NCBI GenBank assembly: GCA_004402895.1
Contig: SORT01000007.1
Span: 1-64,000, forward strand
Reading direction: 5' to 3'
Length of the DNA: 64,000 nucleotides
Source of the DNA: Fidelibacterota bacterium MT.SAG.3
GTDB lineage: Bacteria > Fidelibacterota > SORT01
This document shows, one piece after another, positions 6,032 through 49,372 of the stretch (position 1 is its first letter; each line of letters opens with the position of its first letter). The translations under genes were made by a program, and so were the position numbers. The notes beneath the pieces were generated by a model, which worked only from the letters and a program-made list of their open reading frames with translations, searched no databases and was not told the DNA's origin.

Positions 6032-6812
6032 TCTGGTAGTTTTTCGCGGCGCCGGTGAACTTGCGTCGGGCGCTATTCGCAGACTAATACTCGCAGGATT
6101 TCCTGTTATTGCCCTTGAAACAGAGAAACCGTTGTGTATCCGAAGAACGGTTTCCTTCGCCACAGCTGTGTATGAGAGCGAGGCAGAAGTGGAGGGTGTT
6201 AGAGGAAAATATTTTAAAGAGAGAGTTGATGCTCTGAATGGAGCAAAAGATGGAATCGCCGCTATCATCATTGATCCTGATGGAGCTGCGATCCGTGAGC
6301 TTTCTCCGTCTGTTTTGGTTGACGCACGTATGCTGAAAAAGAATTCGGATATTTCAAGAGAATCGGCTCCCGTTGTAATAGCGTTAGGCCCCGGATATAG
6401 GGCATCTGAAGATGTCCATTATGTAGTTGAAACATCTCGTGGACACGATCTCGGCAGAGTGATCTCGGAGGGTGCGGCATTGCCCGATACAGGAGTTCCG
6501 GGAGAGTTGGGCGGTGAAACGGCGAAACGTGTTTTGCGCGCTCCGGTCAGTGGGGAATTTATTCCTACCATGAAATTGGGTGATATGGTCTCAGCCGGAG
6601 ATGTTGTCGGGGAAGTGAACGGAGCTGAAATCAAGTCAGAGCTTAATGGATTACTTCGAGGTCTGCTCTATGATGGAGTAATGGTTTCAGAAGGGATGAA
6701 GATAGGAGACGTTGACCCTCGTGGAAACAGAGATTTCCTGCATAGCGTCTCTGACAAAGCGAACTCGATTGCCGGTGGAGTGATGGAAGCCGTTTTTAGG
6801 GGAATAGGCTAA
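6015..6812 (+). CDS. YqeB/EF2563-like selenium-dependent molybdenum hydroxylase system protein
   Basis: 265 aa; FRGAGELASGAIRRLILAGFPVIALETEKPLCIRRTVSFATAVYE is characteristic of the family; operonic with MocA and XdhC. Confidence 0.82.
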   Translation: MSYSNNLVVFRGAGELASGAIRRLILAGFPVIALETEKPLCIRRTVSFATAVYESEAEVEGVRGKYFKERVDALNGAKDGIAAIIIDPDGAAIRELSPSVLVDARMLKKNSDISRESAPVVIALGPGYRASEDVHYVVETSRGHDLGRVISEGAALPDTGVPGELGGETAKRVLRAPVSGEFIPTMKLGDMVSAGDVVGEVNGAEIKSELNGLLRGLLYDGVMVSEGMKIGDVDPRGNRDFLHSVSDKANSIAGGVMEAVFRGIG

Positions 6813-10739: not shown

Positions 10740-11333
10740 ATGAAACTCGTTATAGCTACCAGAAACGAAGATAAACTTATAGAAATTAAGGAAATATTTG
10801 AAGGGAGCAGTTTTGAACTCAGTTCGTTGAGCGAGTTTCCTCAAGCGCCTGAAGTTGAAGAAACCGGTGATACTTTATTAGAGAATGCCTTATTGAAAGC
10901 AGAAAGTGCCGCGAAGGCAACGGGGCTACCGGCATTAGCGGATGATACGGGTCTTTTCGTTGAAGCGTTGGATGGAGAGCCGGGTGTGCGGTCTTCACGT
11001 TATGCGGGAGAAAATGTATCATACGAAGAAAACCGCGAATTGCTTTTGGAGAACTTGAATAACGTCCCAAAAGCAGAGCGTACGGCGAAGTTTGTAACGG
11101 TTGCAGTATTTGTAGATGAGATTGGACATATAAAAGCAGAGGGAGAAGTGGTGGGATTGATAACAAGCGAACCGAGGGGGACCAACGGGTTCGGCTATGA
11201 TCCCCTCTTCCAATCAATATATTCGGAGAAGACGTTCGGAGAATTGTCGCGATCAGAAAAAAGAGCATTTAGCCACAGGGGAAAAGCATTCGAGGAGATG
11301 CTGCGAATATTGGATACCAAGTTTATAAAATAA
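10740..11333 (+). CDS. rdgB: XTP/dITP diphosphatase (RdgB/HAM1 family)
   Basis: 197 aa; VIATRNEDKLIEIKEIF, ALADDTGLFVEALDGEPGVRSSRYAG, GTNGFGYDPLF, SHRGKAFEEM. Confidence 0.95.
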   Translation: MKLVIATRNEDKLIEIKEIFEGSSFELSSLSEFPQAPEVEETGDTLLENALLKAESAAKATGLPALADDTGLFVEALDGEPGVRSSRYAGENVSYEENRELLLENLNNVPKAERTAKFVTVAVFVDEIGHIKAEGEVVGLITSEPRGTNGFGYDPLFQSIYSEKTFGELSRSEKRAFSHRGKAFEEMLRILDTKFIK

Positions 11334-11399: not shown

Positions 11400-14300
11400 A
11401 TGAATAAAAATATTAAAAACAACAACAAAAGCGGCAAACGGAGATTCTTTACTGAGTGTCGCTGTTATATAATACTGTTGGTTCTGTCCATGCTTCAGGT
11501 TCCGGCGCTTCTTGCACAGGAAAATGAACAGTTATCAATCTATCCTATCCCCGGATTTGTTCCGCTGTTCAAAGAGAGTTTTCAAGCGCTATACTGGTCT
11601 CCTCACGATTCTAATATTGTGATCGATGGCGCTATACTGCCTTTAAAATCACCCTTGATCAAATCGACAGTAAAGATGGATTCTTCCGGAACATATTTTA
11701 TATTTCGAAGAACGTATCGGGGGAAAGATATTCAGGCTCCGACCATCATAAGCCGATCGGATTATTATTTGCTCGCCAAGGATCATACTTTTTTAGAATT
11801 TTGGACGGAAAGATTAGAGGAAGTGATAAGACGAGAGAGAGAAGCGGGACGTGGAGGGGCTATCGAAATCGTCGGCGGAACGATTGCGGGACAGGACGTA
11901 GCGCTGCGGGTGACCGGTAATATCAATATAAAAGGTGGTATTCGAAACGAAAGCAGGAGTACGGTCGCCCTGAATTTTGCAGAGAACCAGAACACTTCCT
12001 TTAAGCTTGACCAAAAGCAACAATTCAACATTGAAGGAACAATTGGTGATAAGATAAGCTTGCTTGTCGACCAGGATTCCGAAAGGGATTTTGAGTTTGA
12101 AAACGCATTAAAAATTCATTACGTAGGAAATGAAGATGAAATCATTAAACGAATAGACGCAGGCAACATCGATCTCTCTCTTCCGGGAACTCAATTTGCC
12201 GTATCGGGTGGGCGCAATCAAGGCTTATTCGGGTTAAAATCACTAATGAAGATCGGTGGTATGGAAATTACATCAATTGCGAGCGTTGAAAGAGGAAAAA
12301 AACAAAAGCTGACATTGGATGGCGGAGCGACTTCACAGGTGAAAAGGATAGACGATTATGGTTATATGAGAAACACATATTTCTTTCTCGATTATTTCTA
12401 TAGAAATAGTTTCTATCCAACTATAGAAACTTTATTCCGCGCTAAACCTGCGAACAGGAGAATTCAAAATATAGAGGTTTATCTGACTGCCGGAGGCACT
12501 GAAACAGGAAGCTTCGAGGCGATAGCCGTACCCGATCCGAATTCCCCAGAGCAAATTGAAAATTTTGAAGATTTCGGAGGTATAAAGCAGCGATTCAAAC
12601 GATTGATAAAAAATATAGATTACGAAGTAAGCGAAAATCACGGCTTCATCAGAATGAATTCATATATGAGCAAGGATGATGTTCTTGCGGTAAGCTATAT
12701 CGATTTTGGAGGAGATGTCTACGGTGGACAAAGTGTGACTCTTGAAGGAGACACTGCCGAATTGGCTGTATTGAAACTCATAAAGGGTCGGAATCCATTC
12801 CCTTCAGATACAACATGGAATTTGGAATTCAAAAATATCTATTATCTCGGAGCAACAAATATAAACAATGAGGGATTCGAATTAAAAATCGTCGATGACC
12901 GTTCCTCAGGAGAGCCGCAAGAGAGAAATTCAGAGGGCATAAATTTTCTTCAGTTATTCGGTCTTGACTCCCTTGATGTTAACGGTAAATCACAACCAGA
13001 CGAAATTTTCGATATAGACAGTGACGCTATAATCAATTTACAACGAGGAGAGTTATGGTTTCCGGCTCTGAGACCGTTTTATACTCCAAAGGCATTAGAC
13101 TCGAGTTTTTACAGTCAGGCTATTTATGACAAGACCATACCGACAGAACGGCAAGCCGCAAGCAAATTTAAAATTATTGTCTCTTATAAAAATCGCTCAT
13201 CTACAATAAGCCTCGGTTTAAACTTTATTGAGGGAAGCGAAGAGGTTACATTGGACGGTGTAGTGCTCAATAGAGGATCAGACTATACTATAGAAACTTT
13301 CACGGGGCAGTTGACCCTTCTAAAGGAAGGCGCCACCGATCCGGGAGCCAACTTGGAAATAAAATACGAAAATAATCAGCTCTTTCAATTGGACAAGAAA
13401 TCACTTTTGGGAACGAGGGCGGAGTATCGCTTTGGGGAGAATTCATTTTTCGGTGGAACATTTCTTTATTACAGCAAGAGTACAATAGACCGGAAGGTGA
13501 GAGTCGGTGAAGAACCGATACGAAATATGCTGTGGGATTTTAATGGTAAATATTCGGCGAAACCTAATTTTATCTCAAGGGGCGTGAATGCTCTTCCCTT
13601 AATTAAAACCAATCAACCTTCTTCGTTCAGCATGGAAGGCGAGATCGCAAGGATAATTCCGAATCCTAACACACTGAACAGTTCTGAAACGGGTGACAAT
13701 CAGGGAGTAGCATATTTAGATGATTTTGAAGCAAGTAAGAGAATCACATCTCTGACTATAACGCGAAAACATTGGTATAAAGCATCTCCTCCGGATTTTA
13801 AGACGGATGATGAGAGAGCATACACCTACTGGTACAATCCATTTGACCGTGTGTTAACCACAGATATTTGGAAGGACAGGGATACCGGAAATCAGGCGGG
13901 AAATCTGTTCACTGACGTACTGAACATAGTCATCGATACAGAAAAAAACCAGAGAGATGTAGCAGATAGCACCATTGCTCAAGAGCAACGATGGGGAGGC
14001 GTTATGAGAGCGCTCCCCGCGAGTTTTTTCGACCAAACCCAGACCAAATTTATTGAGATATGGATTAGAGGTAGCAATGGACAGGTCAATTTGGATATCG
14101 GCCATATTAGCGAAGATGCAAATGATGACAACATATACAATACGGAAGATATACCTGTGGCCGGAACTATCGGTAACAATATAGTTGATGAAGGTGAGGA
14201 TACAGGACTCGACGGATTGGCTGACGAGGATGAGGAGGGCTATGATCCGGACTCTAATCCGGATCCAAATGCGGATAATTGGATTTTTGATTCCAACATC

Positions 14301-17300
14301 AGACCGCTCGATTATCGTAGAATAAACGGAACAGAGGGAAACCAGAATGATGAAGGAGGGAGAATCCCTGACAGTGAGGACCTCAACAGGAACACATTTC
14401 TTGACACGAGAAGCGATTATTTTGAGTACTCGTTCTGGCTTGATGGCAGAGACGATCATCTCGTTGCAGGAGGGGATAAAAAAAACTGGCGCCTTTTCCG
14501 GCTACCGATAAATTCATACAATTATAAATCAGGCGCAAACGTTAATTTTCAAAATATACAATACGTTAGAGTTTGGGTAACAGGTCTAACAGGTGAGAAA
14601 CTTGTTCAGATAGCGACTATTGAAATGGTCGCGAATGAGTGGCAGGAGTTAGGAGTAAAACGTAAAGGTTTTTCCGAGTTTGACAAGGAAGATTCCGCCT
14701 TTGCAATTACGGTGGTGAATACGGAAGATAACAGCGATATCTATGACGGAAAGAGAGCGAATGGAGACCCGAGTCTCCAACCTCCTCCTGGAGTTGAGGG
14801 AGTTGAAGACCGGATAACAAGGGTAAGAGCGAAAGAACAATCGTTAGTTCTAAAATTTGATGATCTACCTCCGGGAGCTATCGGAGCAGCAAGGAAGGTA
14901 TTTTTCAACGAGCAGGATATAATAAGATACGGAAAGCTCAAGATGTTTGTTCACGGTGATAAACATTTCGGCAAAGACAGCTCTTCGGTAGAGTTTTTCA
15001 TGAGGTTAGGGCGAAATGATGACAGTTACTATGAGATATCGGAACCGGTTTATCCAGGGTGGGACGAACGGAATTTTATCGAGATCGACTTGGATCTGTT
15101 GACGCGGCTGAAACTGCAAGAAGGAGACTCATTCAACATCGGGCAAGGGAAAAAGGTACGAATAGTAAATTCTCCATCCTTAACGAGACTTCGACAGATT
15201 GTAGTCGGAATAAGGAATAAACATAAGGTGGCGCCGATATCAGGTCAGATCTGGCTTGATGAACTTCGTGTGTCTGAAATCAGCAGAGAAGGAGGAATCG
15301 CGGCGCGCGGAAGCGCAACACTCAAAATTGCCGACATTGGAAACGTGAGTTTTAGTGTAACAAAGCAAGATGCCGATTTTCATCGAATCCAAGAAAAAAT
15401 CGGTAAGGCGGGTGGAAGAGTGGAAAATTTTTCGTATAGGTTCAACAATACATTTCAATCGAACAAACTCCTGCCTTCTCGATGGGGACTTGCAATTCCG
15501 ATATCCTTTAACATAAGCCGTTCTGTTAAGACTCCCAAATACCTTCCGGGGACAGATATTAGGGTACAGGGAGCTGCTCCCGATTCTATTAAAAATCTTA
15601 ATCTCCAAAAGACCTTTAAAATATCGTTCAAGAAGAACAGCAAATCACGCTCAAAGCTCATAAAATACAGCTTGGATAAATCTTCGGCCAATTTAAATAT
15701 TGTAAATAAAAACGGGAGCAGCAACCAAATTGCAAAGAAATTTTCAACTGGATACAATGGAGGATATGCTTATAATTTACCTATAAAGCGTAAATCAAAA
15801 ATAAAGCCATTTTTCTGGGTTAGACCCCTTCCCTGGCTTGGTAAGAAAATAGGAGATGAAAAATTTAATTATTATCCGAATTCGCTTAACTGGAATATAA
15901 AAGCGACCGAATCGAAGAGTAATAATGTTCCACGTCGCGGAGTTCCAACAGAATCCTATAAATTTAACATGGTAAGGGGCTTCAAAACGGGCTTTCCTAT
16001 ATTTAAATCGGTAACTCTCAATTATGGAAGGGGATGGACAAACGATCTAAGTGAATTGAGACAGAGAAAATCTGATCTGTTTTCAGGGGATTTCGGAATT
16101 CTCACGAATGGAAATGAAAATTTCTCGACAAAGTGGAATCCCAAAATTTTCGACTTTATGTCAACAAGCTTTGGCTACAGTAGTACGTATCGACTTCAGA
16201 TTCAGAGGGTAGACACATTGAGTAGAAACAATGTGAGCAGTCAAAATCAGTTTAACGCGAATTTAAATTTTAATCTGAAGAAATTCATGTCAATATTCGC
16301 CAAAGAGGATACTAAGCCTAAAAAAGGAAAGAGTAAAAAACGGTCAAGCCGGCGCTCGACGAGAGGTAGAGGGAAGAAATCCCAAAAAGACGAAACAAGC
16401 AAAAAGCAAAAAAATAATCCAACTATCGGCGAACTCTTGACATCACTTTCGAAAAAATTACAACCGGTGAATTTTACTTATTCTAAAAACAAAAACATAT
16501 CAAACCCCGCCTTGTTAGGAGAACCGGGATATGCTTATAAATTAGGTTTCACCGAGGATCCAAATGTAGAAAGAGATCCACGTGTTGTTGCTGAAGACCG
16601 GAAGGGAGAAACAACTAATTTTTCTACTCGAAGCGGACTGAATATAAGCCGGAATTTTACAGTCAATTTATCCTACAGTCAAAACGAACGAAGAAATCGA
16701 ACTTCTTCAAGTAATTTGAATATAACGAAGACGAGAGATTTTTTCCCGATAGGCGTAACAGGAAGAGACGGTTTCCCTTTTCCAAACTGGAACTTTCGAT
16801 TGTCGGGTCTTGAGAAACTACCGATATTTACTAAGTTTACTAAAAGCGTGAGCCTTGAGCATGGGTTCGGAGGGAAGGAAAATAAAAAGGGATTGGAGAC
16901 CATCAGATTTATACAAGAAACAAATACGGATTCTATATCAATGGAGATAACGGGTGTGGATTATTCTAAATCATGGCAACCGCTTGTAGGTATGACCTTT
17001 AATTTCAAAAAGAATATTTCTGCTACATTCAGGTATAACAAATCATCATCAATATCAAATTATTTCGGTGGAATAAGAGAAGGCACTCAACTTCAAAATA
17101 CATCTAATATTTCTTTAACCGCAAACTACTCCAGACGTGGAGGGCTCAATATTCCTCTTGTTTTCTTAAAGGATTTAAAACTCGATAACCAGGTATCGTT
17201 CTCCCTGACCTATGATAACGGTAAGAGTGAAACGCTTACGAGAACAGGTTCAACTGAAGGAGAATTCGCTCCTATTAATCTCTCCAGAAGATGGAGCTTA

Positions 17301-17438
17301 AATCCGCAAATGACTTACTCTTTCAGCTCTAAATTGAATGGAGGTGTATTCTTTGAATTCGGAAAGACAGAGACAATACAGGGCTCTACAAGTTTTAGGG
17401 ATTTTGGCGTCACGGTGAACATTGCTATCAGGGGGTAA
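11400..17438 (+). CDS. sprA: Cell surface protein SprA / type IX secretion outer-membrane translocon
   Basis: 2012 aa exported protein; VAYLDDFEASKR, DEGEDTGLDGLADEDEEGYD, IWLDELRVSEISREGG and long C-terminal beta-rich barrel typical of SprA. Confidence 0.92.
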   Translation: MNKNIKNNNKSGKRRFFTECRCYIILLVLSMLQVPALLAQENEQLSIYPIPGFVPLFKESFQALYWSPHDSNIVIDGAILPLKSPLIKSTVKMDSSGTYFIFRRTYRGKDIQAPTIISRSDYYLLAKDHTFLEFWTERLEEVIRREREAGRGGAIEIVGGTIAGQDVALRVTGNINIKGGIRNESRSTVALNFAENQNTSFKLDQKQQFNIEGTIGDKISLLVDQDSERDFEFENALKIHYVGNEDEIIKRIDAGNIDLSLPGTQFAVSGGRNQGLFGLKSLMKIGGMEITSIASVERGKKQKLTLDGGATSQVKRIDDYGYMRNTYFFLDYFYRNSFYPTIETLFRAKPANRRIQNIEVYLTAGGTETGSFEAIAVPDPNSPEQIENFEDFGGIKQRFKRLIKNIDYEVSENHGFIRMNSYMSKDDVLAVSYIDFGGDVYGGQSVTLEGDTAELAVLKLIKGRNPFPSDTTWNLEFKNIYYLGATNINNEGFELKIVDDRSSGEPQERNSEGINFLQLFGLDSLDVNGKSQPDEIFDIDSDAIINLQRGELWFPALRPFYTPKALDSSFYSQAIYDKTIPTERQAASKFKIIVSYKNRSSTISLGLNFIEGSEEVTLDGVVLNRGSDYTIETFTGQLTLLKEGATDPGANLEIKYENNQLFQLDKKSLLGTRAEYRFGENSFFGGTFLYYSKSTIDRKVRVGEEPIRNMLWDFNGKYSAKPNFISRGVNALPLIKTNQPSSFSMEGEIARIIPNPNTLNSSETGDNQGVAYLDDFEASKRITSLTITRKHWYKASPPDFKTDDERAYTYWYNPFDRVLTTDIWKDRDTGNQAGNLFTDVLNIVIDTEKNQRDVADSTIAQEQRWGGVMRALPASFFDQTQTKFIEIWIRGSNGQVNLDIGHISEDANDDNIYNTEDIPVAGTIGNNIVDEGEDTGLDGLADEDEEGYDPDSNPDPNADNWIFDSNIRPLDYRRINGTEGNQNDEGGRIPDSEDLNRNTFLDTRSDYFEYSFWLDGRDDHLVAGGDKKNWRLFRLPINSYNYKSGANVNFQNIQYVRVWVTGLTGEKLVQIATIEMVANEWQELGVKRKGFSEFDKEDSAFAITVVNTEDNSDIYDGKRANGDPSLQPPPGVEGVEDRITRVRAKEQSLVLKFDDLPPGAIGAARKVFFNEQDIIRYGKLKMFVHGDKHFGKDSSSVEFFMRLGRNDDSYYEISEPVYPGWDERNFIEIDLDLLTRLKLQEGDSFNIGQGKKVRIVNSPSLTRLRQIVVGIRNKHKVAPISGQIWLDELRVSEISREGGIAARGSATLKIADIGNVSFSVTKQDADFHRIQEKIGKAGGRVENFSYRFNNTFQSNKLLPSRWGLAIPISFNISRSVKTPKYLPGTDIRVQGAAPDSIKNLNLQKTFKISFKKNSKSRSKLIKYSLDKSSANLNIVNKNGSSNQIAKKFSTGYNGGYAYNLPIKRKSKIKPFFWVRPLPWLGKKIGDEKFNYYPNSLNWNIKATESKSNNVPRRGVPTESYKFNMVRGFKTGFPIFKSVTLNYGRGWTNDLSELRQRKSDLFSGDFGILTNGNENFSTKWNPKIFDFMSTSFGYSSTYRLQIQRVDTLSRNNVSSQNQFNANLNFNLKKFMSIFAKEDTKPKKGKSKKRSSRRSTRGRGKKSQKDETSKKQKNNPTIGELLTSLSKKLQPVNFTYSKNKNISNPALLGEPGYAYKLGFTEDPNVERDPRVVAEDRKGETTNFSTRSGLNISRNFTVNLSYSQNERRNRTSSSNLNITKTRDFFPIGVTGRDGFPFPNWNFRLSGLEKLPIFTKFTKSVSLEHGFGGKENKKGLETIRFIQETNTDSISMEITGVDYSKSWQPLVGMTFNFKKNISATFRYNKSSSISNYFGGIREGTQLQNTSNISLTANYSRRGGLNIPLVFLKDLKLDNQVSFSLTYDNGKSETLTRTGSTEGEFAPINLSRRWSLNPQMTYSFSSKLNGGVFFEFGKTETIQGSTSFRDFGVTVNIAIRG

Positions 17439-17442
17439 TTAT

Positions 17443-18357
17443 TTGAAGTTATCAGTCTCAGCAATGCTTAGTTTTCTATTTGTTCTGATCCTGTTTTCCT
17501 GCGGCGGAAATAAACCGGATTTTGATGGAGACAGCGCATTTGGCTATCTCGTAAAACAGTGTGATTTCGGTCCTCGAAATCCTGGTTCGAGGGGTCATAA
17601 AAATACGCTTAATTATTTGTTAACTGAAATGAGAACTTTTGCGGACAGTGTAAAGGTTCAAAAATTCACCCATTTTGATAACGGAACGGGTGAATCGCTT
17701 GAATTGACAAATATCATCGCATCATTTGGAGTTTATGATGCTAATCGGGTTTTGTTAGCGGCTCATTGGGATACAAGACCACGTTCGGATCAGGATATAG
17801 TTCCCTCGAAAAGAAATCAGCCGCTACTTGGCGCAAACGACGGTGCAAGCGGAGTAGCTGTGTTATTAGAGCTGGCGAAAGTATTTAGTGAAAACCCTCC
17901 TCCTATCGGTGTCGATCTGATTCTCTTTGATGGCGAAGATTTCGGAGAAGAGGGCGACTTAGACAGGTACTTTCTCGGTTCGAGACATTTCGCAAAGAAC
18001 TTCACGGGGCAAAAACCAAAGTGGGCGATTATTATAGATATGGTCGGGGACGCTGAACTCGAGCTGCCGATAGAACGGTATTCTTTTGAGCGAAATAAGA
18101 AATTGGTCGAAAAAGTGTGGGATGCGGCAGAGAGAGCAGGAGCGTCACAGTTCAAGCGAAGATTGGGAAGCTATGTTCAAGATGATCATCTTATGCTATA
18201 CGAATATGCCGGTATCGCAGCGATAGATATTATTGATTTTGATTATGTCCGCGGCGGTATAAATCTCTGGCACACATCCCTTGATACCCCGGAGATGTGC
18301 AGTCCTGCAAGCCTCGCCGCGGTCGGAAGGACGCTGATAGAGCTTATTTATGAATAG
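17443..18357 (+). CDS. M28-family glutaminyl-peptide cyclotransferase-like lipoprotein
   Basis: AAHWDTRPRSDQD, LLGANDGASGVAVLLELA, LILFDGEDFGEEG, QDDHLMLYEYAGIAAIDIIDFDY, LWHTSLDTPEMCSPASL; lipobox LFSC-GG; start TTG 17443 after a GGGGG tract preferred over 17422. Confidence 0.85.
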   Translation: MKLSVSAMLSFLFVLILFSCGGNKPDFDGDSAFGYLVKQCDFGPRNPGSRGHKNTLNYLLTEMRTFADSVKVQKFTHFDNGTGESLELTNIIASFGVYDANRVLLAAHWDTRPRSDQDIVPSKRNQPLLGANDGASGVAVLLELAKVFSENPPPIGVDLILFDGEDFGEEGDLDRYFLGSRHFAKNFTGQKPKWAIIIDMVGDAELELPIERYSFERNKKLVEKVWDAAERAGASQFKRRLGSYVQDDHLMLYEYAGIAAIDIIDFDYVRGGINLWHTSLDTPEMCSPASLAAVGRTLIELIYE

Positions 18358-31220: not shown

Positions 31221-32126
31221 TCAGATACCTATCCCGAAACTAATCTGGTGCGTATCGCCGAGGTTGAAGTCGAAGGGGAGGTAGGCATAATCAAACGAGT
31301 AACGCTTTAGTCTGATGCCGATACCAGCCGTGATACCGGAAGAGTTTTCGGAGTTGCGTCTGTAACCGCCCCGCAGACTGAGCATATCGTTGTGAATCAA
31401 TTCTCCGCCAAGCCGGACAAATGAATCGGATTCTAAATATTTACCGGCATCAAACGCCCAATTCAATGAAAGAGAAGTTGTCGGATCGAAACCGCTGCTC
31501 AGACCACCCGTAATTCGTGTCGGTAGCGATGTTGATTCGTTACTCAGTGTTGACATGTTTCCGATGTCTTTTAGAACTAATGCGGATTTGAGATTAAAAA
31601 AATCGAAATTTTTAATCAGACCGAGGTCAAGAGCGAATCCGGTTGCGGAGTAAATATGAATTTTTTCGTAGAGGAACTTTGCAGTAACTCCGATCTTCAA
31701 ATTACCATTCAGAGCTGTTGCGGTACTGAATGCCATTGCCAATGAATTCGAGCTGAAATAACCTAACGGTTCAACAGTGGGACCATCCCGCTTTTCGATA
31801 TCGCCTACACCGGATAGAGCGATACTAAGCCCGAAGTTCAGCTTATCTGAAGGAATATTTATGCCGAGAAATTGATTGTTGGAACCGGCAAGCCACTCTT
31901 GATTAGAAAAGATGACGTTAATCTCGTCGGAAACGGCTATTCCGGCGGGATTCCAGTACGCAGCGGATGCGTTTGAAGCGTTGGCGACCGCTGCCCCGCC
32001 CATCGCTGAAGAGGCTGCATCCACACCGATTTTAAGAAACGACATACCGGTTGCAGAGCCGTCTCCGGCATAGAGGAAAGTTTGGAACAGCAAAAAGGCA
32101 GCCGAAATGTGAATAAAATTTCTCAT
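31221..32126 (-). CDS. PorV/PorQ-family outer membrane protein
   Basis: 301 aa; MSFLKIGVDAASSAMGGAAVANASNASAAYWNPAGIA, C-terminal HQISFGIGI. Confidence 0.82.
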   Translation of the reverse strand: MRNFIHISAAFLLFQTFLYAGDGSATGMSFLKIGVDAASSAMGGAAVANASNASAAYWNPAGIAVSDEINVIFSNQEWLAGSNNQFLGINIPSDKLNFGLSIALSGVGDIEKRDGPTVEPLGYFSSNSLAMAFSTATALNGNLKIGVTAKFLYEKIHIYSATGFALDLGLIKNFDFFNLKSALVLKDIGNMSTLSNESTSLPTRITGGLSSGFDPTTSLSLNWAFDAGKYLESDSFVRLGGELIHNDMLSLRGGYRRNSENSSGITAGIGIRLKRYSFDYAYLPFDFNLGDTHQISFGIGI

Positions 32127-33050
32127 TTAGAATATAAACTCCCAACTGAACAAATGAGTTCCCCCTTCACCGACAAATTCCGGCTGGAAAGCATAATCTA
32201 TGTTTGTATAAATCCCTTCGGAAACAAAATAATATAGCCCTCCTCCAAATGAGAGAGCTGTGTCATCCGCCCCGATTCTCACCGAATAGAGTTCATCTCG
32301 TTGATACTCGACGCCGAAACGGAAACGTTCCTCTTGTTCTTGATTAAATTCGAAAGATGATGCGATCAATAACCAGCTATCAAGCAAGTACGAACCGCCG
32401 ATGTGGACGCTGTAGGGGATCTCATCGGTTGATTTAGTTCCGAAATCAAAAATCTTTTGGGTGTCCCATATCAGCCCGCCATTATAATCTTTTAAGGTCA
32501 CGCCCAAGCGCAGTGCGTCGAATGGAATAACCATTACGCCGAAATCGAAAGCCAAGTCGTTTGCATCAAGTTTATCATCAACCAGGTCAAGTGATTGAGA
32601 CAGAATTTTCATCGTCAAGCCGAGAGCAAACTTTTCGTGAAATTTATTCGAGAATGATATTCCAAACGCGTTCATGGTCTCGCTGTAGTCGGACGTATGA
32701 TTCCCCGAAAGGTCCCGCCCATCAATATTATCCGTGCCTGCGCCAAGCCAATATATAGAAAGCCCCGCAGTCGGTTTCAGGTTCTGTGAGTAAGAAATAA
32801 AATGGAATTGCCTGTCGAGTGTTAGGAACGAGTAGGTCGTGACAAAATGTCTCTTGGTTAAGAATGGCAGTCCCGCCGGATTGTAGTATGCCGCGAATCC
32901 GTCGTCAGCCACTGCCGTATGCGCTCCGCCCATCGATATTCCTCTCGCGCCGAGACCCATTCTCAGGAACGGAGCGGCAAACCCGCTGTCACCCTGAGCG
33001 AAAAGGGTTGCGGGCAGAAGAAGCAAAAATAGTGAAAATGTTTTTGTCAT
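32127..33050 (-). CDS. PorV/PorQ-family outer membrane protein
   Basis: 307 aa; FLRMGLGARGISMGGAHTAVADDGFAAYYNPAGLPF; abuts 31221 gene. Confidence 0.85.
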   Translation of the reverse strand: MTKTFSLFLLLLPATLFAQGDSGFAAPFLRMGLGARGISMGGAHTAVADDGFAAYYNPAGLPFLTKRHFVTTYSFLTLDRQFHFISYSQNLKPTAGLSIYWLGAGTDNIDGRDLSGNHTSDYSETMNAFGISFSNKFHEKFALGLTMKILSQSLDLVDDKLDANDLAFDFGVMVIPFDALRLGVTLKDYNGGLIWDTQKIFDFGTKSTDEIPYSVHIGGSYLLDSWLLIASSFEFNQEQEERFRFGVEYQRDELYSVRIGADDTALSFGGGLYYFVSEGIYTNIDYAFQPEFVGEGGTHLFSWEFIF

Positions 33051-33051
33051 A

Positions 33052-34650
33052 TTATTCGATCACCATGACTTTTCCCCAAAGCGCTTCCTCTCTGCCGGAG
33101 ACGCCTCTGATGGATATTTTGTAAAAATAAGTTCCGTTGGCAACGATATTCCCGAATCCGTTCCTGCCTGTCCATGTTTCACCATCCCTCTCGCCAGCAT
33201 TGCGCAGGACTCCGTTCACTGGTGCAGCTACCAATGTCATGGAAAAATCATATACACTGATGGAGACAGTAGATTCCTCGGAAAGTGAGTAATGAAATCT
33301 TATGTGTCCTTCCCCGTTAAAGACGTTGTGCCTTGCGGGAGAAAACGGATTAGGATATGAATATGTGCGTATACTTCCAGGTTCAGATGTAGATTGTACA
33401 GCCCGAAGAACGGTCCAGGTAAAACCGTCATTATTAGTGAAAATGAGTCCGTCCGCGGTTCCAGCCCATAATCTTTTGTCCGGCATTACGATTGCGGAAT
33501 ATACCGTTCGAGTATATAGAGGAGTATCCGTTTCCTGATCTGTTATATCCGAGAATGATGCCCATGTGATACCGCCATCAACAGACTTGAAGAGGCCGCT
33601 GTCCGCCGCTGCATACAGAACAGAATCATCCGAGGCGAAATTCCAAACCCTTTGACCACGCAAAACAGTTCGCCATGATATTCCTCCGTCTTTGGTGAGA
33701 GAGACACCGAGAAATTCACCGGCGACCGTAGGTCGGGTTGCCGCAAGAATCGTCTCTTCACCATTCCATTGGTGTCGATGAAGAGAAACTACCCAATCTC
33801 CGCTAATGCCGCTTCTGTTTCGGCTGGTGAATTTGTACCATGAAACGCCACCATCGGTAGAGCGATTGATACCCCCCGCCGTTCCTACTATAACGGTATC
33901 GCCCCATGCGATGATAGAAAAGGGACGATGATTAAAACTGCCTGTAACGCCGAAAAATGTGTTATTGACGGGGCTGAGGTCGAAGTCGTGATTCGAAGAG
34001 TCGGTCAGCATGTCTTCCTCGTCAGGAGGAAGCACGATACGTTTCCATGTAACACCGAGGTCGGTTGAGGAACGGACTCCACCTGCGAAGGAAGTAATAT
34101 AAATCGTAGAGTCTTCCGTGATCGCTATGTCAAATGTGATGTTATCAACGTCAATGACGATAGGGAGCGCGTCGATCGTATCACCGAATATAATTTCAAA
34201 CAGTGCGTCATCGGCATCTTTAGGTTGATCGATATGAGTCCAGCTGAAGCCGTTGTCCATAGAAATGGTCAAACCGCTTCCGGTGCCGTTAGATTCTTCG
34301 ACATCAGGATCGTTAAACGCGTTCGCGACTATCACTATATCTCCCATAACAGCGAGAGCTGAAACTCCTCCCTTTCCAATGTCAAGTTCATCACTTGAAA
34401 TATATTCTTCAAATGTGGTTCCGTTGTCTGATGTAAAATTCAGACCTTTACCCGTCCCGACCCATAATTGATTGAGGTCGTTCATTTTCAGATCGGTTAC
34501 CGAGTTGCCGAGCAAACGTGCGCTTTTGTGGAGAGTCGAACGACCATCTAAATTAAAGTTCCTTATCTGTTGGGCTGAAAGGTCGTTGAGTCCAATAAGA
34601 AGAGAAAGGATTAGAAGCGCTATTTGTAATAATATCTTGATCATAGTCAA
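33052..34650 (-). CDS. Exported BNR/YCF48-like repeat protein with C-terminal FlgD-like/T9SS type A sorting domain
   Basis: 532 aa; repeats such as STDGGVSWYKF, KSVDGGITWASF, TNNDGFTWTVL; C-term YSYPNPFSPARH...VSISVYDFSM...GNIVANGTYFYKISI. Confidence 0.82.
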   Translation of the reverse strand: MTMIKILLQIALLILSLLIGLNDLSAQQIRNFNLDGRSTLHKSARLLGNSVTDLKMNDLNQLWVGTGKGLNFTSDNGTTFEEYISSDELDIGKGGVSALAVMGDIVIVANAFNDPDVEESNGTGSGLTISMDNGFSWTHIDQPKDADDALFEIIFGDTIDALPIVIDVDNITFDIAITEDSTIYITSFAGGVRSSTDLGVTWKRIVLPPDEEDMLTDSSNHDFDLSPVNNTFFGVTGSFNHRPFSIIAWGDTVIVGTAGGINRSTDGGVSWYKFTSRNRSGISGDWVVSLHRHQWNGEETILAATRPTVAGEFLGVSLTKDGGISWRTVLRGQRVWNFASDDSVLYAAADSGLFKSVDGGITWASFSDITDQETDTPLYTRTVYSAIVMPDKRLWAGTADGLIFTNNDGFTWTVLRAVQSTSEPGSIRTYSYPNPFSPARHNVFNGEGHIRFHYSLSEESTVSISVYDFSMTLVAAPVNGVLRNAGERDGETWTGRNGFGNIVANGTYFYKISIRGVSGREEALWGKVMVIE

Positions 34651-35462
34651 TTGGTTATAACGATAGGCACATGGATCGTGTCGCTTTTTACTCCAGAGAA
34701 ATCTTCAGCCTTTATGAAAAATGTCCATATTCCAATTCTGACTGTGGATGTAGTTGGCTGTTTCACGGAGTAAATACCATCTCCGGCAGTTCGATCACCC
34801 GATAAGCCATCGTCCCGAAAAAAGAAGGATGGGCTTTGAACCAGCTCCGAGTCAGGCGCGAGAGCATCGTACGTCACTTTCCGAATATCGGCAAGCCCAT
34901 TAGAGTCGGAGACAGACATTTCTATAAAGATGGTATCACCCGCAGCTATAGTATCGGTAGAGGATAAAAAACTTAGTTGAGGCCGATAGTTCGTGATATC
35001 CAACAGCAGTTCGAAATTATCAGCAGCATTAGAATCAAAATCATACGCGGAAATCAGAAACCGGAAACTTCCAAGCCCGGAATCAGTGAGTGAATGGGAG
35101 AGAAGAGCTGAAAATCTCCCGTCTCCGCGGATAATGTCGCCGTTGATCCCACTGTCATTCAGCGCGCCGGTGAGAGAATCGTTTCGTCCAGTTTTGAACG
35201 CTTTATATGTTACCGAGGCAACAGTTGACAGACCCTGTGGGTCCGATAAAAGAGCTTCTAAGAAAAAACGCTGCGTGATATCATTATATTCAGCCCGAAC
35301 ACTGTCAATAGACGGCGAAACGGATAGAGTGTCGGTGTCGTCTGTTTCGATAGGGAAATTCTCTTCGCAGGAACTGACCAACACAAAAAGTGAAATCAGC
35401 ACGACGAGTGTTCGCACCTGAGTATAAAAATATGTTTTATTCATCGTAAAAATTTCGGGCAA
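34647..35462 (-). CDS. Exported lipoprotein with Ig/cadherin-like repeats
   Basis: 271 aa; lipobox LVSSC-EE; repeated DPQGLSTVASVTYKAF / DSNGLADIRKVTYDAL and GDGRFSALL / GDGIYSVKQ motifs; overlaps 33052 gene. Confidence 0.72.
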   Translation of the reverse strand: MPEIFTMNKTYFYTQVRTLVVLISLFVLVSSCEENFPIETDDTDTLSVSPSIDSVRAEYNDITQRFFLEALLSDPQGLSTVASVTYKAFKTGRNDSLTGALNDSGINGDIIRGDGRFSALLSHSLTDSGLGSFRFLISAYDFDSNAADNFELLLDITNYRPQLSFLSSTDTIAAGDTIFIEMSVSDSNGLADIRKVTYDALAPDSELVQSPSFFFRDDGLSGDRTAGDGIYSVKQPTTSTVRIGIWTFFIKAEDFSGVKSDTIHVPIVITN

Positions 35463-35614
35463 ATATACATGGAGTTAATGGAATTGTCAAGCCGAATAAG
35501 AATTGCAAATGGATTGTCCCTCAAATAGCTTGAATAATCCCGATTTCATTAAAGCTTGCGAAATGCAACCTAAAGGTTTAAACTCTCGTAACTGGTTTTA
35601 TAAAATTGTTAATA

Positions 35615-35932: not shown

Positions 35933-36013
35933 AACTACTCTAATATCTTCCGAATAAATAATTGATTTTCTAATTGTCCGCATGATGCATCGCGGATCAA
36001 ACGGAGTAATATT

Positions 36014-37216
36014 TTGAAACTATTATCTTTGATTTTATTAATACTCAGCCTGAGCTCTACAACGCTGTATGCTCAGCAAAACGAAGCTGAAAGTTCCGCA
36101 GCTGACAGCGCAGATGCCGCCTTAGAAGCGGAATTAGCTAAAATGATGCTGCAGGAGAAAAGTTCATCAAAGCCGGCTTTGCAATCAGTCGTGCAGTTTC
36201 CAACCACGGCCGGTGGAGGGATAAGCAATATGAACCCGAATATCGGGCTGATCAGTAAATTCAGCGGAGATGCTTTGGCAAATGGTGAAGCAGAGATCGG
36301 CGAAGGAGAGCGATCCCCTGAAGGGTTTAACTTTCACGAAGTCGAGCTCTCTTTTCAGATGGTAATTGACCCCTACGCCCGCGCGGATTTCTTTATAGCG
36401 TTTCTTCCCGAAGAAGGAGAGGTGGAACTGGAGGAGGCGTTTATCACGGTTTTTTCTCTGCCGTTTGACCTGAGAGCAAAGGCGGGAATAATTCGGACGA
36501 AGTTTGGCAGATTGAATCCGATCCATCCGCCTGAAGTAGTCTTTGTAGACTATCCGCTGCCGTTGGAAATGTATTTCGGCGGAGAAGGATTGGTCGGCAC
36601 GGGAGTTTCCATGAGCTACCTCATACCTAATAAATGGGACCTCTTTTGGGAGGCGACATTTGAGGTGACAAACGGCGACAACGATATGATATTCAACGGG
36701 AATTCAACGAACGATATGGCGTATAACGGACATTTCAGTTCTTTCTTCAATTTAGGCGATAACTCCGCATTACTGCTCGGCGGCACTGCCATGACCGGCA
36801 TTAATGATGATTTAGGGCTGTATAGAACGAATGTTTACGGGATAGACCTCACCTACAAATGGAAACCGCTGCGGAGACAGCTTTACAAGTCTTTTACCTG
36901 GCAGACAGAATTCTTTTTCCTGAACAGGGAGGAAGCAGCACCTGAAAGCATAAAAGCAACCGGTTTTTATTCGTATATGGAATATCAACTCGGAATACGA
37001 TGGTTTGTTCTCGGACGGTATGACAGGGCTGAATTAACGGATAACTCGGGAAATGCCGATGAGAAATATGTAGCGGCATTAACCTACTTCCCGAGCAATT
37101 TTCAAACTATTAGATTACAATCCACTACAAGCAAAGATTTTACCGGAGAGAGCAGCACACTTGTGTCTCTGCAGTGGAATTTCGTAATCGGCGCTCACGG
37201 CGCACATATATATTAA
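36014..37216 (+). CDS. Outer-membrane beta-barrel (porin-like), linked to metal-uptake genes
   Basis: 400 aa, TTG start, signal peptide TLYA|QQN, amphipathic beta-strand pattern; directly upstream of znuA-like. Confidence 0.72.
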   Translation: MKLLSLILLILSLSSTTLYAQQNEAESSAADSADAALEAELAKMMLQEKSSSKPALQSVVQFPTTAGGGISNMNPNIGLISKFSGDALANGEAEIGEGERSPEGFNFHEVELSFQMVIDPYARADFFIAFLPEEGEVELEEAFITVFSLPFDLRAKAGIIRTKFGRLNPIHPPEVVFVDYPLPLEMYFGGEGLVGTGVSMSYLIPNKWDLFWEATFEVTNGDNDMIFNGNSTNDMAYNGHFSSFFNLGDNSALLLGGTAMTGINDDLGLYRTNVYGIDLTYKWKPLRRQLYKSFTWQTEFFFLNREEAAPESIKATGFYSYMEYQLGIRWFVLGRYDRAELTDNSGNADEKYVAALTYFPSNFQTIRLQSTTSKDFTGESSTLVSLQWNFVIGAHGAHIY

Positions 37217-37227
37217 ACGGAGTATTA

Positions 37228-38163: not shown

Positions 38164-38209
38164 ACAGTCGTATTATAACCTGAAACAGCTTTAAATAGGA
38201 GATAAAAAG

Positions 38210-40767: not shown

Positions 40768-40824
40768 GGCTTTGTAGGGCTGGGCGTCAGGGCTCCAAAG
40801 GAGTGTTTTCGACACAAGCCCTAA
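40764..40824. repeat. Nested palindromic element overlapping acyl-CoA dehydrogenase stop codon
   Basis: TTAGGGCTT ... AAGCCCTAA terminal inverted arms with internal CTCC-AAA-GGAG. Confidence 0.55.
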
Positions 40825-40845
40825 CTACCACGGAATTTAACAGTT

Positions 40846-45402: not shown

Positions 45403-45649
45403 TGCTCCCCGAAAACTGGACCATTTATAATGCGAGTTTTCTCATTAACTTGCATAATGAAGGAGATACCAGAGGATTTGACAAAGCAGATTTACACAGG
45501 AGCAGATCGTAGCGATCTTAAACCAGTCGGAGAACGGGATATCGATTGGTGATCTCACAAGGAAGCTGGGCATCAGTGAAGAGACATTTTACCGATGGAA
45601 GAAGAAGTACAGCGGTATGGGAATAGCGGAGCTGCGATACCGGTTATAG
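45403..45649 (+). mobile_element. IS3-family left-end remnant (terminal sequence plus truncated orfA)
   Basis: TGCTCCCCGAAAACTGGACCA end then frame SRFTQEQIVAILNQSENGISIGDLTRKLGISEETFYRWKKKYSGMGIAELRYRL*. Confidence 0.75.
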
Positions 45650-45945
45650 TGTCAGTCACCGATGAAGATAATTCTCTCCCGATGGGGTTCACACTTTCGC
45701 AGAACTATCCGAATCCATTTAATCCGGTTACCACCGTTAACTATTCACTTTCTATCTCGGGATTTGTGAACCTTTCGATCTATAATATAAGAGGTGAGTT
45801 AGTCTCGACAGTAGTTAATGAGTTTCAGAAACCCGGAGAATATAGAGCCGATTGGAATGCAGACAACATCGCTTCGGGAATCTACTTTTACCGTCTGCAA
45901 ATCGGCAGCGCTTCGATCAGCAAGAAGATGCTGTTATTGAAATAG
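45595..45945 (+). pseudogene. Orphan T9SS type A sorting domain (3' end of a truncated surface-protein gene)
   Basis: SLPMGFTLSQNYPNPFNPVTTVNYSLSISGFVNLSIYNIRGELVSTVVNEFQKPGEYRADWNADNIASGIYFYRLQIGSASISKKMLLLK; no upstream body. Confidence 0.75.
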
Positions 45946-46101: not shown

Positions 46102-46857
46102 ATGTATGGAAAGATGAGAGTCTTACTAACGTTATTGGCTTTACCCGCAGCACTGTATGCTCAGGATATAGCAATTTCTGAGCAAAGAACGCTTATAAAC
46201 AGACCGACAGCAGGATCTCTCGAAAGAGGAAGCTACGACATCGAGTTGCGTATGTATCCCGGCGGCGGGCTGCTCGGCGGAATAGCCGTCGGATTAACCG
46301 AAAGAATAACTTTCGGCACTTCTTTCGGCGGATTGAATATTATAGGCGAGGGGGAGGTGATTTGGAATCCTAAACCTGAGGCGAATATTAAATACAGGTT
46401 GATGGAGGAATCCTATACGGCTCCGGCGCTATCGATCGGTTATAGCGGACAGGGATTCGGTAAATGGGACGAAGAATTGAAACGTTATCAAATTAAATCA
46501 GCGGGTGTATATGCCGCGCTGAGTAAAAATTACAGTATGGTCGGAAATCTCGGCTTTCATGCCGGTGTTAATCTAAGTTTAGAAAAAGATGACGGCGACG
46601 AAGACATCAATTTATGGATAGGATTTGATAAAAGTATCAATGAAGAAATATCGTTCCTCGGCGAGTATGATTTCGCTCTGAACGATAACAGCTCCAAGAG
46701 TCTCGGCTCGGGAGACGGATATTTGAACGCAGCATTGCGTTGGGCATTCGTAGAAGAATTAATAATTGAATTAAATGTCAATAATCTGCTGGGCAACCGT
46801 GAAGATACAGACGCATCAAGCAGAGAGTTGAAAATTATTTACGTAGAGTTTTTCTAA
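46102..46857 (+). CDS. Outer-membrane beta-barrel hypothetical protein
   Basis: 251 aa; signal peptide AALYA|QDI; alternating beta-barrel pattern. Confidence 0.7.
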   Translation: MYGKMRVLLTLLALPAALYAQDIAISEQRTLINRPTAGSLERGSYDIELRMYPGGGLLGGIAVGLTERITFGTSFGGLNIIGEGEVIWNPKPEANIKYRLMEESYTAPALSIGYSGQGFGKWDEELKRYQIKSAGVYAALSKNYSMVGNLGFHAGVNLSLEKDDGDEDINLWIGFDKSINEEISFLGEYDFALNDNSSKSLGSGDGYLNAALRWAFVEELIIELNVNNLLGNREDTDASSRELKIIYVEFF

Positions 46858-46875: not shown

Positions 46876-47706
46876 ATGCTGGGACAAACAATATTTGCAC
46901 TGATCATAGGAATGTTAATCATGCCTATGGCAGCAATAGCTCAGGACATGGGGGAGAGCGATTCTTCGATGATGGAGAGTGATACTTCCATGCACGATAT
47001 GGCGATGGAAATGAGCGCTGCTTTAATGTATGAGGCAGAGGGAGATTCATTGCATTCAGCATTTGACACAGACGGAGCATTAGAAGCGTATTTAGAGGCG
47101 AACGAAGAGGATCCGGAAAATACGACTTACATCTGGAAAATAGTGCGTGAATACGCCGACAAAGGAATATTTGCCGACGATGACGATGAGATGGAAGCTG
47201 CATATATTGAAGGCGAGACATGGGCAAGAAAGTGTGTGGCTATGGCTCCGGAAGACGGCAATTGTCATCTATACCTCGCTATAGCCGTCGGTAGGATAGC
47301 AGAATCAAAAAGTGGCAAAACCAAAGTAAGACTTTCAAGAGAAGTTAATGAAGAAGCCGCCAAATCAATTGAGCTCAACCCTAATCTTGATGGCGCATAT
47401 CATGTGCTCGGGCGTTGGAACAGAGAAGTTGTTGCGCTTCCATGGTACCTGAAAGCCGCTGTAAGCATGTTTTTAGGAGGACTGCCATCTGCAACGAATG
47501 ACGAAGCCGTAAAGAATTTCAATATGGCGATCGATCTTCGACCGGATCGGATGCTGCATTATTTTGAGTTAGGTGTTACTTATAAATACATGGGCGAAAA
47601 AGAGAAAGCCAAAATTAAATTTGAAAAAACGCTTTCAATGGACTTAGTAGAACGCAAAGATGAAAGCAGGCACGAAGAAGCGAGAAAATATTTATCTAAG
47701 CTCTGA
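46876..47706 (+). CDS. Exported TPR-like protein
   Basis: 276 aa; signal peptide AAIA|QDM; LEAYLEANEEDPENTTY and AVKNFNMAIDLRPDRMLHYFELGVTYKYMGEKEKAKIKFEKTL TPR units. Confidence 0.8.
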   Translation: MLGQTIFALIIGMLIMPMAAIAQDMGESDSSMMESDTSMHDMAMEMSAALMYEAEGDSLHSAFDTDGALEAYLEANEEDPENTTYIWKIVREYADKGIFADDDDEMEAAYIEGETWARKCVAMAPEDGNCHLYLAIAVGRIAESKSGKTKVRLSREVNEEAAKSIELNPNLDGAYHVLGRWNREVVALPWYLKAAVSMFLGGLPSATNDEAVKNFNMAIDLRPDRMLHYFELGVTYKYMGEKEKAKIKFEKTLSMDLVERKDESRHEEARKYLSKL

Positions 47707-47785: not shown

Positions 47786-49372
47786 ATGAATATATGCAAG
47801 TATCTTTGCATCAGCGTTGTAATACTGATGTGGACAGGGAATATATTAGCTCAAAGAATTAGAATTGTTGAATTGACCCCTTTTGATCCAAATAGATCAT
47901 CTGCTACAATAATTTACTTACCGAGTAATTCTGAAAGTTATAACTCATTGAGATTGTCTTCGATGGGAAGCGGATTAAACGGCATAGTCAGCGATGGAAT
48001 TTCTGATTATTTCAGAAATCCTGCAGATCTGAATATGGATTAGCAAAGAGCTTATTACCTTGATTTCGATAATAAAGGTGCTTCAAATGATTTGCGAATC
48101 AGTTTGTTCTCGCCTTTGTTAAACGGGCAATTTGGTCTATCATTTAGTGGAAATACATCTGAAAACATTACGACGAACAATAGGACAGATCCTGAGTTAG
48201 ACTTATTTGAAGAGAATGTAACTGCTATTTCCAGTAATCGCAAAACATCAAATAGCAGTTACAATATTCATCTATGGTGGGCAAATAATCTATCCAAAAA
48301 CTTTCAGTACGGGTTTAATTATATAAAAAAAAGCTCTGATTTCAACTCTAGCCGAGTTAACACATCCTCAAGAACAACTGCGAGGACAGATATTTTTAAT
48401 GAATCAACTACTGTAAGCAGCAGAGTTGATAGCAGATTGACTGATAACGATAGAGAAGTGAATGTAAACACAATCAGAGTCGGTTTAATATTCGGATCAT
48501 TACCCGGTGTTGTCGTTGATATGGTTTTAAAAGCTGAATTTAATGATATCAACTCTGACGCTCTTGCCAACAGAATGACCAATAATAGTTATTCATATAT
48601 ACGACCAAATTATTCCAGCACGTCGGAATTTACCGACGTCACCTTAAACGTAATTGATAGTAAAGGTAATAATTCTGTATACGGATTGAAAATTAATGTC
48701 AAGAAAGAGATAAACGAGAATGTCATACAAAGCTATTTTCTTTCTTATGATAGGATCAATTTTGATTTTTCAGTGAATGAGATGAAAAGTGATTCTATGA
48801 CTTCCTATCAAAAAAGAGATTCGATATTCTCAAATACAAATAATTCCTTTTTATCTGAACAGAATTCAAACTATGATATTACGGCAGCGTATGTATTAGG
48901 AATTGGCTTTGGAAGAGAGATCAGACTTGAGAAAGCTCTCGTCGGCATAGGCGCAATTGCAAAAATATCTAAGGCAAATTGGGATGATGAATTAAGCGGT
49001 TCGTCCACGCGATTAACAGATATATCGAACAATGACACCACATATCAACAAAGCTCATCTGCCGAATTGGCATCAGTGAATAAAAGTGACGTTAGTGCAG
49101 TTTTAATCAGTTTCCCTTTAGGAGGAGAAGTCAATGTTTCGAAAAAAGTCAGTCTCAGATTGGGAGTAGAATTCAACGTCATTTTTTCTAAGAACAAAAT
49201 AACTTCCTCATCGGGCAGTCTATTATCAAATTCAGAAAACAGATCACTGCGGGATATTAAAAGTTTCGGAATCGGCTACAAACACTCTGAGAAGTTTAGT
49301 ATTGACTTGATGGCGATAGGTAATTTAGCACAAATTTCCACATGGAGGGTTTCTATTCGGTACGGCTTATAG
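47786..49372 (+). pseudogene. Exported beta-rich protein interrupted by one in-frame TAG (48041-48043)
   Basis: ORFs 47786-48043 and 48092-49372 share one frame; reading through gives ...FRNPADLNMD*QRAYYLDFDNKGASNDLRISLFSPLLNG... Confidence 0.7.

What the first reader, a model, noticed from the sequence alone, without database searches (positions are those of the whole stretch)
11400..18357. Gln at +1 of many predicted signal-peptidase-I exports, with a glutaminyl-cyclase-like lipoprotein directly after sprA
At least eight predicted exported proteins in this window have a predicted cleavage site followed immediately by Gln: SprA (PALLA|QENEQ), 27338 (SIRA|QKN), 32127 (TLFA|QGD), 33052 (DLSA|QQI), 36014 (TLYA|QQN), 46102 (ALYA|QDI), 46876 (AAIA|QDM), 47786 (NILA|QRI). 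The gene after sprA encodes an M28 glutaminyl-cyclase-like lipoprotein (HWDTRP, GANDGASG, DGEDFGEEG). This is the pattern described for Bacteroidetes as the Q-rule (N-terminal pyroglutamate on exported proteins). Here it appears in what may be a non-Bacteroidetes FCB genome, with the cyclase physically linked to the T9SS translocon.
Basis: partly seen in the sequence, partly recalled or inferred. Interest (0 to 1): 0.75.

Follow-up and report, generated by a model that had tools for sequence, protein, structure and literature searches.

The report
Q-rule cyclase inside T9SS operon
A marine bacterium outside the Bacteroidetes marks about half of its exported proteins with an N-terminal glutamine, and it carries the enzyme expected to cap that glutamine right next to its type IX secretion pore gene; this 'Q-rule' had been reported as exclusive to Bacteroidetes.

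Summary
The window lies in Fidelibacterota (Candidatus Neomarinimicrobiota), a non-Bacteroidota FCB phylum. In 1.24 Mb of this genome, Gln follows the learned signal-peptidase-I site in 48% of 129 signal-peptide candidates, against 4% (maximum 6%) after shuffling and a 2.5% proteome background; E. coli run the same way shows no enrichment. The gene after sprA is a type II glutaminyl cyclase of the Bacteroides/Porphyromonas kind: best fold match BtQC (TM 0.88/0.91), with the bacteroidal zinc ligands and catalytic acids present in all 107 homologues. sprA-qc adjacency held in every named Neomarinimicrobiota locus that reaches far enough, and also occurs in KSB1, Zixibacteria and Calditrichota. 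In most Neomarinimicrobiota families qc sits inside a contiguous T9SS operon (rdgB-sprA-qc-lipoprotein-BNR/CTD-porV-porV'). One genome (G205) keeps sprA and porV on one contig without qc and shows no Gln enrichment (1-2 of 20 proteins). So the Q-rule appears to operate outside Bacteroidetes, contrary to the 2023 claim of exclusivity, with a T9SS-linked cyclase: a known kind of system in a new phylum and a new gene context. Cyclisation itself is inferred, not shown.

The parts
11400..17438 (+). sprA: T9SS outer-membrane translocon SprA/Sov, 2012 aa; predicted SPI cut PALLA|QENEQ with Gln at 11517-11519
   Evidence: TIGR04189 843.7 bits, cut-off 200; PF14349; cleavage site
17443..18357 (+). qc: type II (M28-fold) glutaminyl cyclase lipoprotein, 304 aa from the TTG at 17443; lipobox LFS|C with Cys codon 17500-17502, then Gly-Gly; zinc ligands D133, D166, H277; catalytic E165, D199
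   Evidence: Solved-structure matches, residue conservation, model and fold search, start
10740..11333 (+). rdgB-like gene, conserved upstream neighbour of sprA across the phylum (outside the Q-rule itself)
34647..35462 (-). lipoprotein gene; in other families it lies directly after qc
33052..34650 (-). BNR/CTD-like protein with Gln at +1 (DLSA|QQI); in other families part of the sprA-qc operon
32127..33050 (-). PorV/PorQ-family protein with Gln at +1 (TLFA|QGD)
   Evidence: NF033709 98 bits, cut-off 90
31221..32126 (-). second PorV/PorQ-family protein (LYA|GDG, no Gln at +1)
   Evidence: NF033709 151.5 bits
27338..28618 (-). predicted export with Gln at +1 (SIRA|QKN)
36014..37216 (+). predicted outer-membrane protein with Gln at +1 (TLYA|QQN)
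46102..46857 (+). predicted export with Gln at +1 (ALYA|QDI)
46876..47706 (+). predicted export with Gln at +1 (AAIA|QDM); leader without K/R, so rejected by the filters used here
   Evidence: sequence; TPR/RMD1-3 match
47786..49372 (+). predicted outer-membrane protein with Gln at +1 (NILA|QRI), interrupted by TAG at 48041
45595..45945 (+). T9SS type A sorting domain (CTD) reading frame
   Evidence: TIGR04183 43.5 bits, cut-off 23

Best explanation
This Fidelibacterota (Neomarinimicrobiota) organism follows the Q-rule. About half or more of its Sec/SPI exports carry Gln directly after the SPI site (shown by sequence statistics). Signal peptidase I exposes that Gln at the outer face of the inner membrane (inferred). 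The lipoprotein glutaminyl cyclase encoded after sprA, probably kept in the inner membrane by its Cys-Gly-Gly start (inferred), converts it to pyroglutamate, using one zinc ion bound by D133/D166/H277 and the acids E165/D199 (residues shown, activity inferred). The cap is expected to protect periplasmic, outer-membrane and T9SS-exported proteins from aminopeptidases, as proposed from experiments in Porphyromonas gingivalis. The gene belongs to a T9SS operon widespread in this phylum, and the sprA-qc pair is shared with KSB1, Zixibacteria and Calditrichota, probably because T9SS components and cargo are major clients of the cap (inferred).
For: Gln at +1 48% vs 3.9% shuffled, other tests p=4e-22 and 6e-23, E. 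coli control at background. Cyclase: closest solved structures are bacteroidal cyclases, E 1e-46 to 1e-54; fold match to BtQC, TM 0.88/0.91; zinc ligands and catalytic acids invariant in 107 of 107 homologues, Gly150 and Trp298 of cyclase type in the window protein (roles from PMC7948796). No type I cyclase found. sprA-qc adjacency and T9SS operon. PorU 763 bits and 34 CTD matches. G205 lacks qc between sprA and porV and lacks the Gln enrichment.
Against: No biochemistry or N-terminal proteomics. The signal-peptide caller is home-made and admits membrane anchors. Two pocket aromatics of PgQC are not kept (Trp193 is Tyr, Phe294 is Gly in the alignment). Q-value in another family of the phylum with qc (G003) is only 16% of 19, and several SAR406 SprA proteins lack Gln at +1. 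G205 is one genome and 20 proteins. The own genome is 69% complete.
Confidence: 0.85

Rival explanations
1. The M28 protein is an ordinary two-zinc aminopeptidase and not a cyclase; the Gln bias has another cause.
For: General family match is M28 peptidase, and NCBIfam gives only weak aminopeptidase/DapE matches far below cut-off. Superfamily members share active-site residues, so activity cannot be proven from them (PMC5837995). Trp193 and Phe294 are not kept.
Against: Bacteroidal-specific zinc ligand Asp183, Gly150 (Asn/Asp in aminopeptidases) and Trp298 (Tyr in aminopeptidases) are all present. All top structural matches are cyclases or proteins re-annotated as cyclases. The +1 Gln enrichment fits a cyclase.
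Confidence: 0.06
2. Gln at +1 is only a preference of signal peptidase I or an inherited sequence habit; cyclisation is spontaneous or absent and the cyclase serves a few substrates.
For: Homologues exist in Cloacimonadota and Armatimonadota without clear Gln enrichment, so enzyme and rule can be separated. Gln can cyclise spontaneously (PMC5837995).
Against: A conserved bacteroidal-type cyclase is kept in 92 of 94 high-quality genomes of the phylum. Where it is lost (G205) the enrichment is also absent.
Confidence: 0.08
3. The cyclase is dedicated to the T9SS: it modifies SprA, PorV-family proteins and CTD cargo and is needed for secretion itself, and the wider Gln enrichment is secondary.
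For: Conserved position between sprA and the porV module in most families, and sprA-qc pairing in three other phyla.
Against: Gln at +1 is not confined to recognisable CTD proteins: 3 of 5 CTD-proxy proteins and 60 of 124 others have it (small sample). In P. gingivalis pyroglutamate is not a general sorting signal (PMC5837995). G205 keeps sprA and porV without qc.
Confidence: 0.15
4. The pattern is an artefact of prediction, composition or mis-binning of Bacteroidota DNA.
For: Crude signal-peptide caller; genome 69% complete in 116 contigs.
Against: Enrichment is confined to +1, vanishes on shuffling, is spread over 61 sampled stretches and is absent from E. coli. The locus is in MT.SAG.2 at 95% identity and across the phylum. 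QC sequences of the phylum mostly group together rather than with the Bacteroidota ones.
Confidence: 0.02

Closest known systems
Bacteroidetes Q-rule with PgQC (PG2157) of Porphyromonas gingivalis (PMC5837995, PMC10653852)
   Same: Gln at +1 of many SPI exports, a single-zinc type II cyclase lipoprotein with Gly after the lipid-bearing Cys, and a T9SS in the same cell.
   Different: Different phylum; qc is fused into the T9SS gene cluster next to sprA, while PgQC lies in an operon with PG_2158 and hemG (PMC10653852). The measured Q-value (48%, probably an underestimate) is below the 71% Bacteroidetes average (PMC5837995).
Bacteroidal type II glutaminyl cyclases of known structure: BtQC (7d1d, 4fuu), TfQC (6qro), PgQC (6qql)
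   Same: Fold (TM 0.88/0.91 to BtQC), Asp/Asp/His zinc site, catalytic Glu and Asp, Gly150, Trp298, RP..D loop.
   Different: 36-39% identity; Tyr in place of Trp193 and no Phe294 at the aligned position.
Ignavibacterium album (Q-value 77%), Chloroherpeton thalassium (55%)
   Same: High Q-values outside classical Bacteroidetes, noted in PMC5837995 without an explanation.
   Different: Belong to the Bacteroidetes/Chlorobi/Ignavibacteria lineage (GTDB places them in Bacteroidota, from my own knowledge); Fidelibacterota is a separate FCB phylum and was not named in that paper.

Membership tests
Q-rule organism (Bochtler et al. 2018) | Gln directly after the SPI site in a large share of SPI exports, far above background | tested here: met
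   48% learned, 28% strict, background 2.5%, shuffles 3.9%. It reaches the lower end of the Bacteroidetes range (332 of 334 species above 48%) with a cruder predictor.
Q-rule organism (Bochtler et al. 2018) | Exposed Gln converted to pyroglutamate in the cell | not testable with these tools
   Needs N-terminal mass spectrometry.
Bacteroidal type II glutaminyl cyclase | Zinc ligands Asp149, Asp183, His299 and acids Glu182 and the HsAsp248 counterpart (PgQC numbering) | tested here: met
   All present in the window protein and in 107 of 107 homologues.
Bacteroidal type II glutaminyl cyclase | Gly150 and Trp298 instead of aminopeptidase Asn/Asp and Tyr | tested here: met
   Both present in the window protein; Gly150 in 103 of 107 and Trp298 in 103 of 107 homologues.
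Bacteroidal type II glutaminyl cyclase | Pocket aromatics Trp193 and Phe294 | tested here: not met
   Tyr and Gly in the window protein; position 294 is poorly aligned outside the phylum. These line the pocket and are not the metal or acid-base residues.
Bacteroidal type II glutaminyl cyclase | Fold | tested here: met
   Model pLDDT 93.5; top structural matches are the bacteroidal cyclases.
Bacteroidal type II glutaminyl cyclase | Glutaminyl cyclase activity | not testable with these tools
   Needs an enzyme assay.
Bacteroidal type II glutaminyl cyclase | Inner-membrane lipoprotein | tested here: inconclusive
   Lipobox LFSC followed by Gly-Gly in the sequence; location not tested.
Type IX secretion system | SprA, PorU sortase, PorV family, CTD cargo | tested here: met
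   SprA 843.7 bits, PorU 763 bits over cut-off 420, PorV family, 34 CTD matches. PorK/L/M/N were not searched.

The most novel reading that the evidence does not exclude
The glutaminyl cyclase is an original part of the type IX secretion gene set of FCB bacteria: the Q-rule arose together with the T9SS before the FCB phyla split, and the unlinked cyclase of Bacteroidota and the unmarked exports of some phyla are later losses of that link.
Probability: 0.3. Interest if true: 0.7.

Novelty: new variant of a known kind. Interest (0 to 1): 0.52.

Why it matters
The 2023 paper states that the Q-rule is exclusive to Bacteroidetes and suggests their high proteolytic pressure as the reason; a marine FCB phylum that follows it calls both into question. 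The conserved sprA-qc pair gives a genetic link between pyroglutamate capping and the T9SS, which in 2018 was only suspected from co-occurrence. Lineages that have lost qc, such as G205, let one test directly whether Gln at +1 is kept up by the enzyme.

Tried and rejected
A first cleavage predictor misplaced many sites and was replaced by a model that learns the +1 column. Pooled loci around qc hold many orthologues of the same few genes, so their raw figures were redone on non-redundant sets. A type I (beta-propeller) cyclase as the enzyme: none found in the genome. A possible Glu-at-+1 pattern in Cloacimonadota (37% in one genome) fell to 15% without redundancy and is not significant. Literature searches for glutaminyl cyclase with Marinimicrobia or with sprA and operon gave nothing relevant.

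Full report
Identity of the genome. The window is contig C7 of a 1.75 Mb, 116-contig, 69% complete genome. The cyclase of the closest named relative is 95% identical and lies on contig SORU01000001 of Candidatus Marinimicrobia bacterium MT.SAG.2. NCBI now calls the phylum Fidelibacterota (formerly Candidatus Neomarinimicrobiota); it is in the FCB group and separate from Bacteroidota.

Gln at +1. No SignalP was available. I took 1.24 Mb of the genome, called open frames and kept N-termini with a charged n-region and a hydrophobic core, leaving out lipoproteins and multi-span proteins. A predictor that never looks past the cut gave Gln at +1 in 28% and 0-8% at every other position from -3 to +7, against 2.5% Gln in the proteome. 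A mixture model whose +1 column starts flat and is learned from the data gave 48% Gln in 129 candidates; the next residue was Gly at 11%, and 100 shuffles of the c-region gave 3.9% (sd 1.1%, maximum 6.0%). The simplest test, the residue after [..]xA in the c-region, gives 28.1% Gln against 2.3% after the same tripeptide in mature parts, p=4e-22. E. coli through the same pipelines gives only its own background. Because membrane anchors dilute the set, the true Q-value is probably higher than 48% (inference).

The enzyme. Sequence search against solved structures ranks the P. distasonis, B. thetaiotaomicron, B. vulgatus, T. forsythia and P. gingivalis enzymes first at E 1e-46 to 1e-54; the best aminopeptidase of another type (YwaD) is at 4e-6. 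The AlphaFold model (pLDDT 93.5) matches B. thetaiotaomicron cyclase with TM 0.88/0.91, and the top 50 matches are cyclases or proteins that PMC7948796 re-assigns as cyclases. With the residue roles of PMC7948796, the three zinc ligands, including the Asp that replaces the animal Glu, and both catalytic acids are invariant in 107 homologues. The residues that separate cyclase from aminopeptidase (Gly150, Trp298) are cyclase-type in the window protein. Two pocket aromatics differ (Trp193 to Tyr, Phe294 to Gly). No type I cyclase was found in the genome. The protein starts with lipobox LFSC followed by Gly-Gly; Gly after the lipid-bearing Cys is linked to inner-membrane retention in P. gingivalis (PMC10653852).

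Gene context. qc starts 4 nt after the sprA stop. SprA is directly upstream in 28 of 28 short loci of the phylum that carry upstream DNA (these are the best-scoring hits) and in the larger named loci of the phylum that reach that far. The pair also occurs in KSB1 (L070, L072), Zixibacteria (L071, L073, L076, L100, L111), Calditrichota (L069, L080) and two unnamed bins (L079, L086), with gaps from -29 to 68 nt. It is absent at the Bacteroidetes-labelled, Cloacimonadota and Armatimonadota loci examined. In most families of the phylum the order is rdgB-sprA-qc-lipoprotein-BNR/CTD protein-porV-porV', often with overlapping ends. By coordinates, qc and the best porV match lie within 4 kb on one strand in at least 20 of 30 family representatives. 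In the window's own family the last four genes lie about 13 kb away on the other strand (31221-35462; also G198 and G195). PorU and 34 CTD matches confirm a T9SS.

Other lineages. On non-redundant sets, Gln at +1 by the learned model is 47% in KSB1 (n=21), 58% in Calditrichota (n=12), 38% in a Bacteroidetes-labelled set (n=18), 26% in Zixibacteria (n=34), 16% in Neomarinimicrobiota G003 (n=19), 12% in Cloacimonadota (n=26), 18% in Armatimonadota (n=17) and 9% in E. coli (n=22); the tripeptide test is not significant for the last three. The samples are small: KSB1 and Calditrichota are clear (p=3e-4 and 2e-3), the middle values are not settled. G205, a 94% complete genome, has sprA and porV on one contig (C86:31158-37136 and 40685-41590) but no cyclase between them or elsewhere; its best M28 match scores 65 bits in a 1123-codon frame, against 345-437 bits for true cyclases. 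Its Gln share is 1-2 of 20, against 49 of 106 in the window's genome (p=0.0003 to 0.002). This is what one expects if the enzyme maintains the rule, but it is one genome and 20 proteins, and G003, which has qc, is also low.

History. In a quick tree of the homologues, most cyclases of the phylum group together and apart from the Bacteroidota ones. That argues against a recent transfer, although the window's own family falls in a separate small clade with one Bacteroidetes-labelled sequence at modest support.

Literature. The 2018 paper describes the rule as a Bacteroidetes feature not shared by the whole FCB group, while noting high values in Ignavibacterium and Chloroherpeton with no obvious pattern. 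The 2023 paper calls it exclusive to Bacteroidetes and offers proteolytic pressure as the reason. No paper in the held library joins glutaminyl cyclase with Marinimicrobia, and the only one joining it with sprA and operon concerns an unrelated clostridial protein. Subscription papers and preprints could not be searched.

Judgement. Shown: Gln enrichment, cyclase residues and fold, T9SS, operon linkage. Inferred: cyclisation, protection from aminopeptidases, and the reason for the linkage. This is a known kind of system in a phylum where it was said not to occur, with a conserved gene arrangement that I did not find described.

Noticed in passing
window 47786-49372: Outer-membrane-like gene with a signal peptide is interrupted by an in-frame TAG at 48041; the relative G197 has an uninterrupted 530-codon frame. 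Real nonsense mutation or assembly error not decided.
   Followed up: partly
window 31221-35462: The lipoprotein-BNR/CTD-porV-porV' module, which follows qc directly in most families of the phylum, lies about 13 kb away on the opposite strand here and in G198 and G195: a rearrangement specific to this family.
   Followed up: yes
L035, L038, L040, L047, L054, L056, L057, L058, L064: In streamlined pelagic SAR406-type genomes SprA itself has Asn, Ser or Gly at +1, although other exports there still have Gln and qc still follows sprA.
   Followed up: partly
G205 contig C86:31158-41590: Family f28 genome with sprA and porV together but no cyclase, and no Gln enrichment at +1 in a sample of 20 proteins: a possible natural loss experiment.
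   Followed up: partly
L214-L223 (Cloacimonadota G262): Glu appears often at +1 of signal-peptide candidates (37% in the raw set) in a genome with a cyclase homologue; 15% and not significant on a pooled non-redundant set. Three of seven Cloacimonadota homologues have Ala in place of Gly150.
   Followed up: partly
L067, L090, L093, L095, L106, L108: Armatimonadota carry close homologues of the cyclase with all catalytic residues, but no SprA over the family cut-off in their genomes and no clear Gln rule: the role of the enzyme there is unexplained.
   Followed up: no
window 35606-39034: Small exported His/Glu-containing protein, outer-membrane protein, ZnuA-like binding protein and ABC permease in a row; possibly a metal uptake group, from reading the sequences only.
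   Followed up: no
window 4645-6812: Three adjacent genes that read like MobA/MocA-type nucleotidyltransferase, XdhC/CoxI-type and YqeB-type proteins, as in molybdenum-hydroxylase maturation; from reading the sequences only.
   Followed up: no
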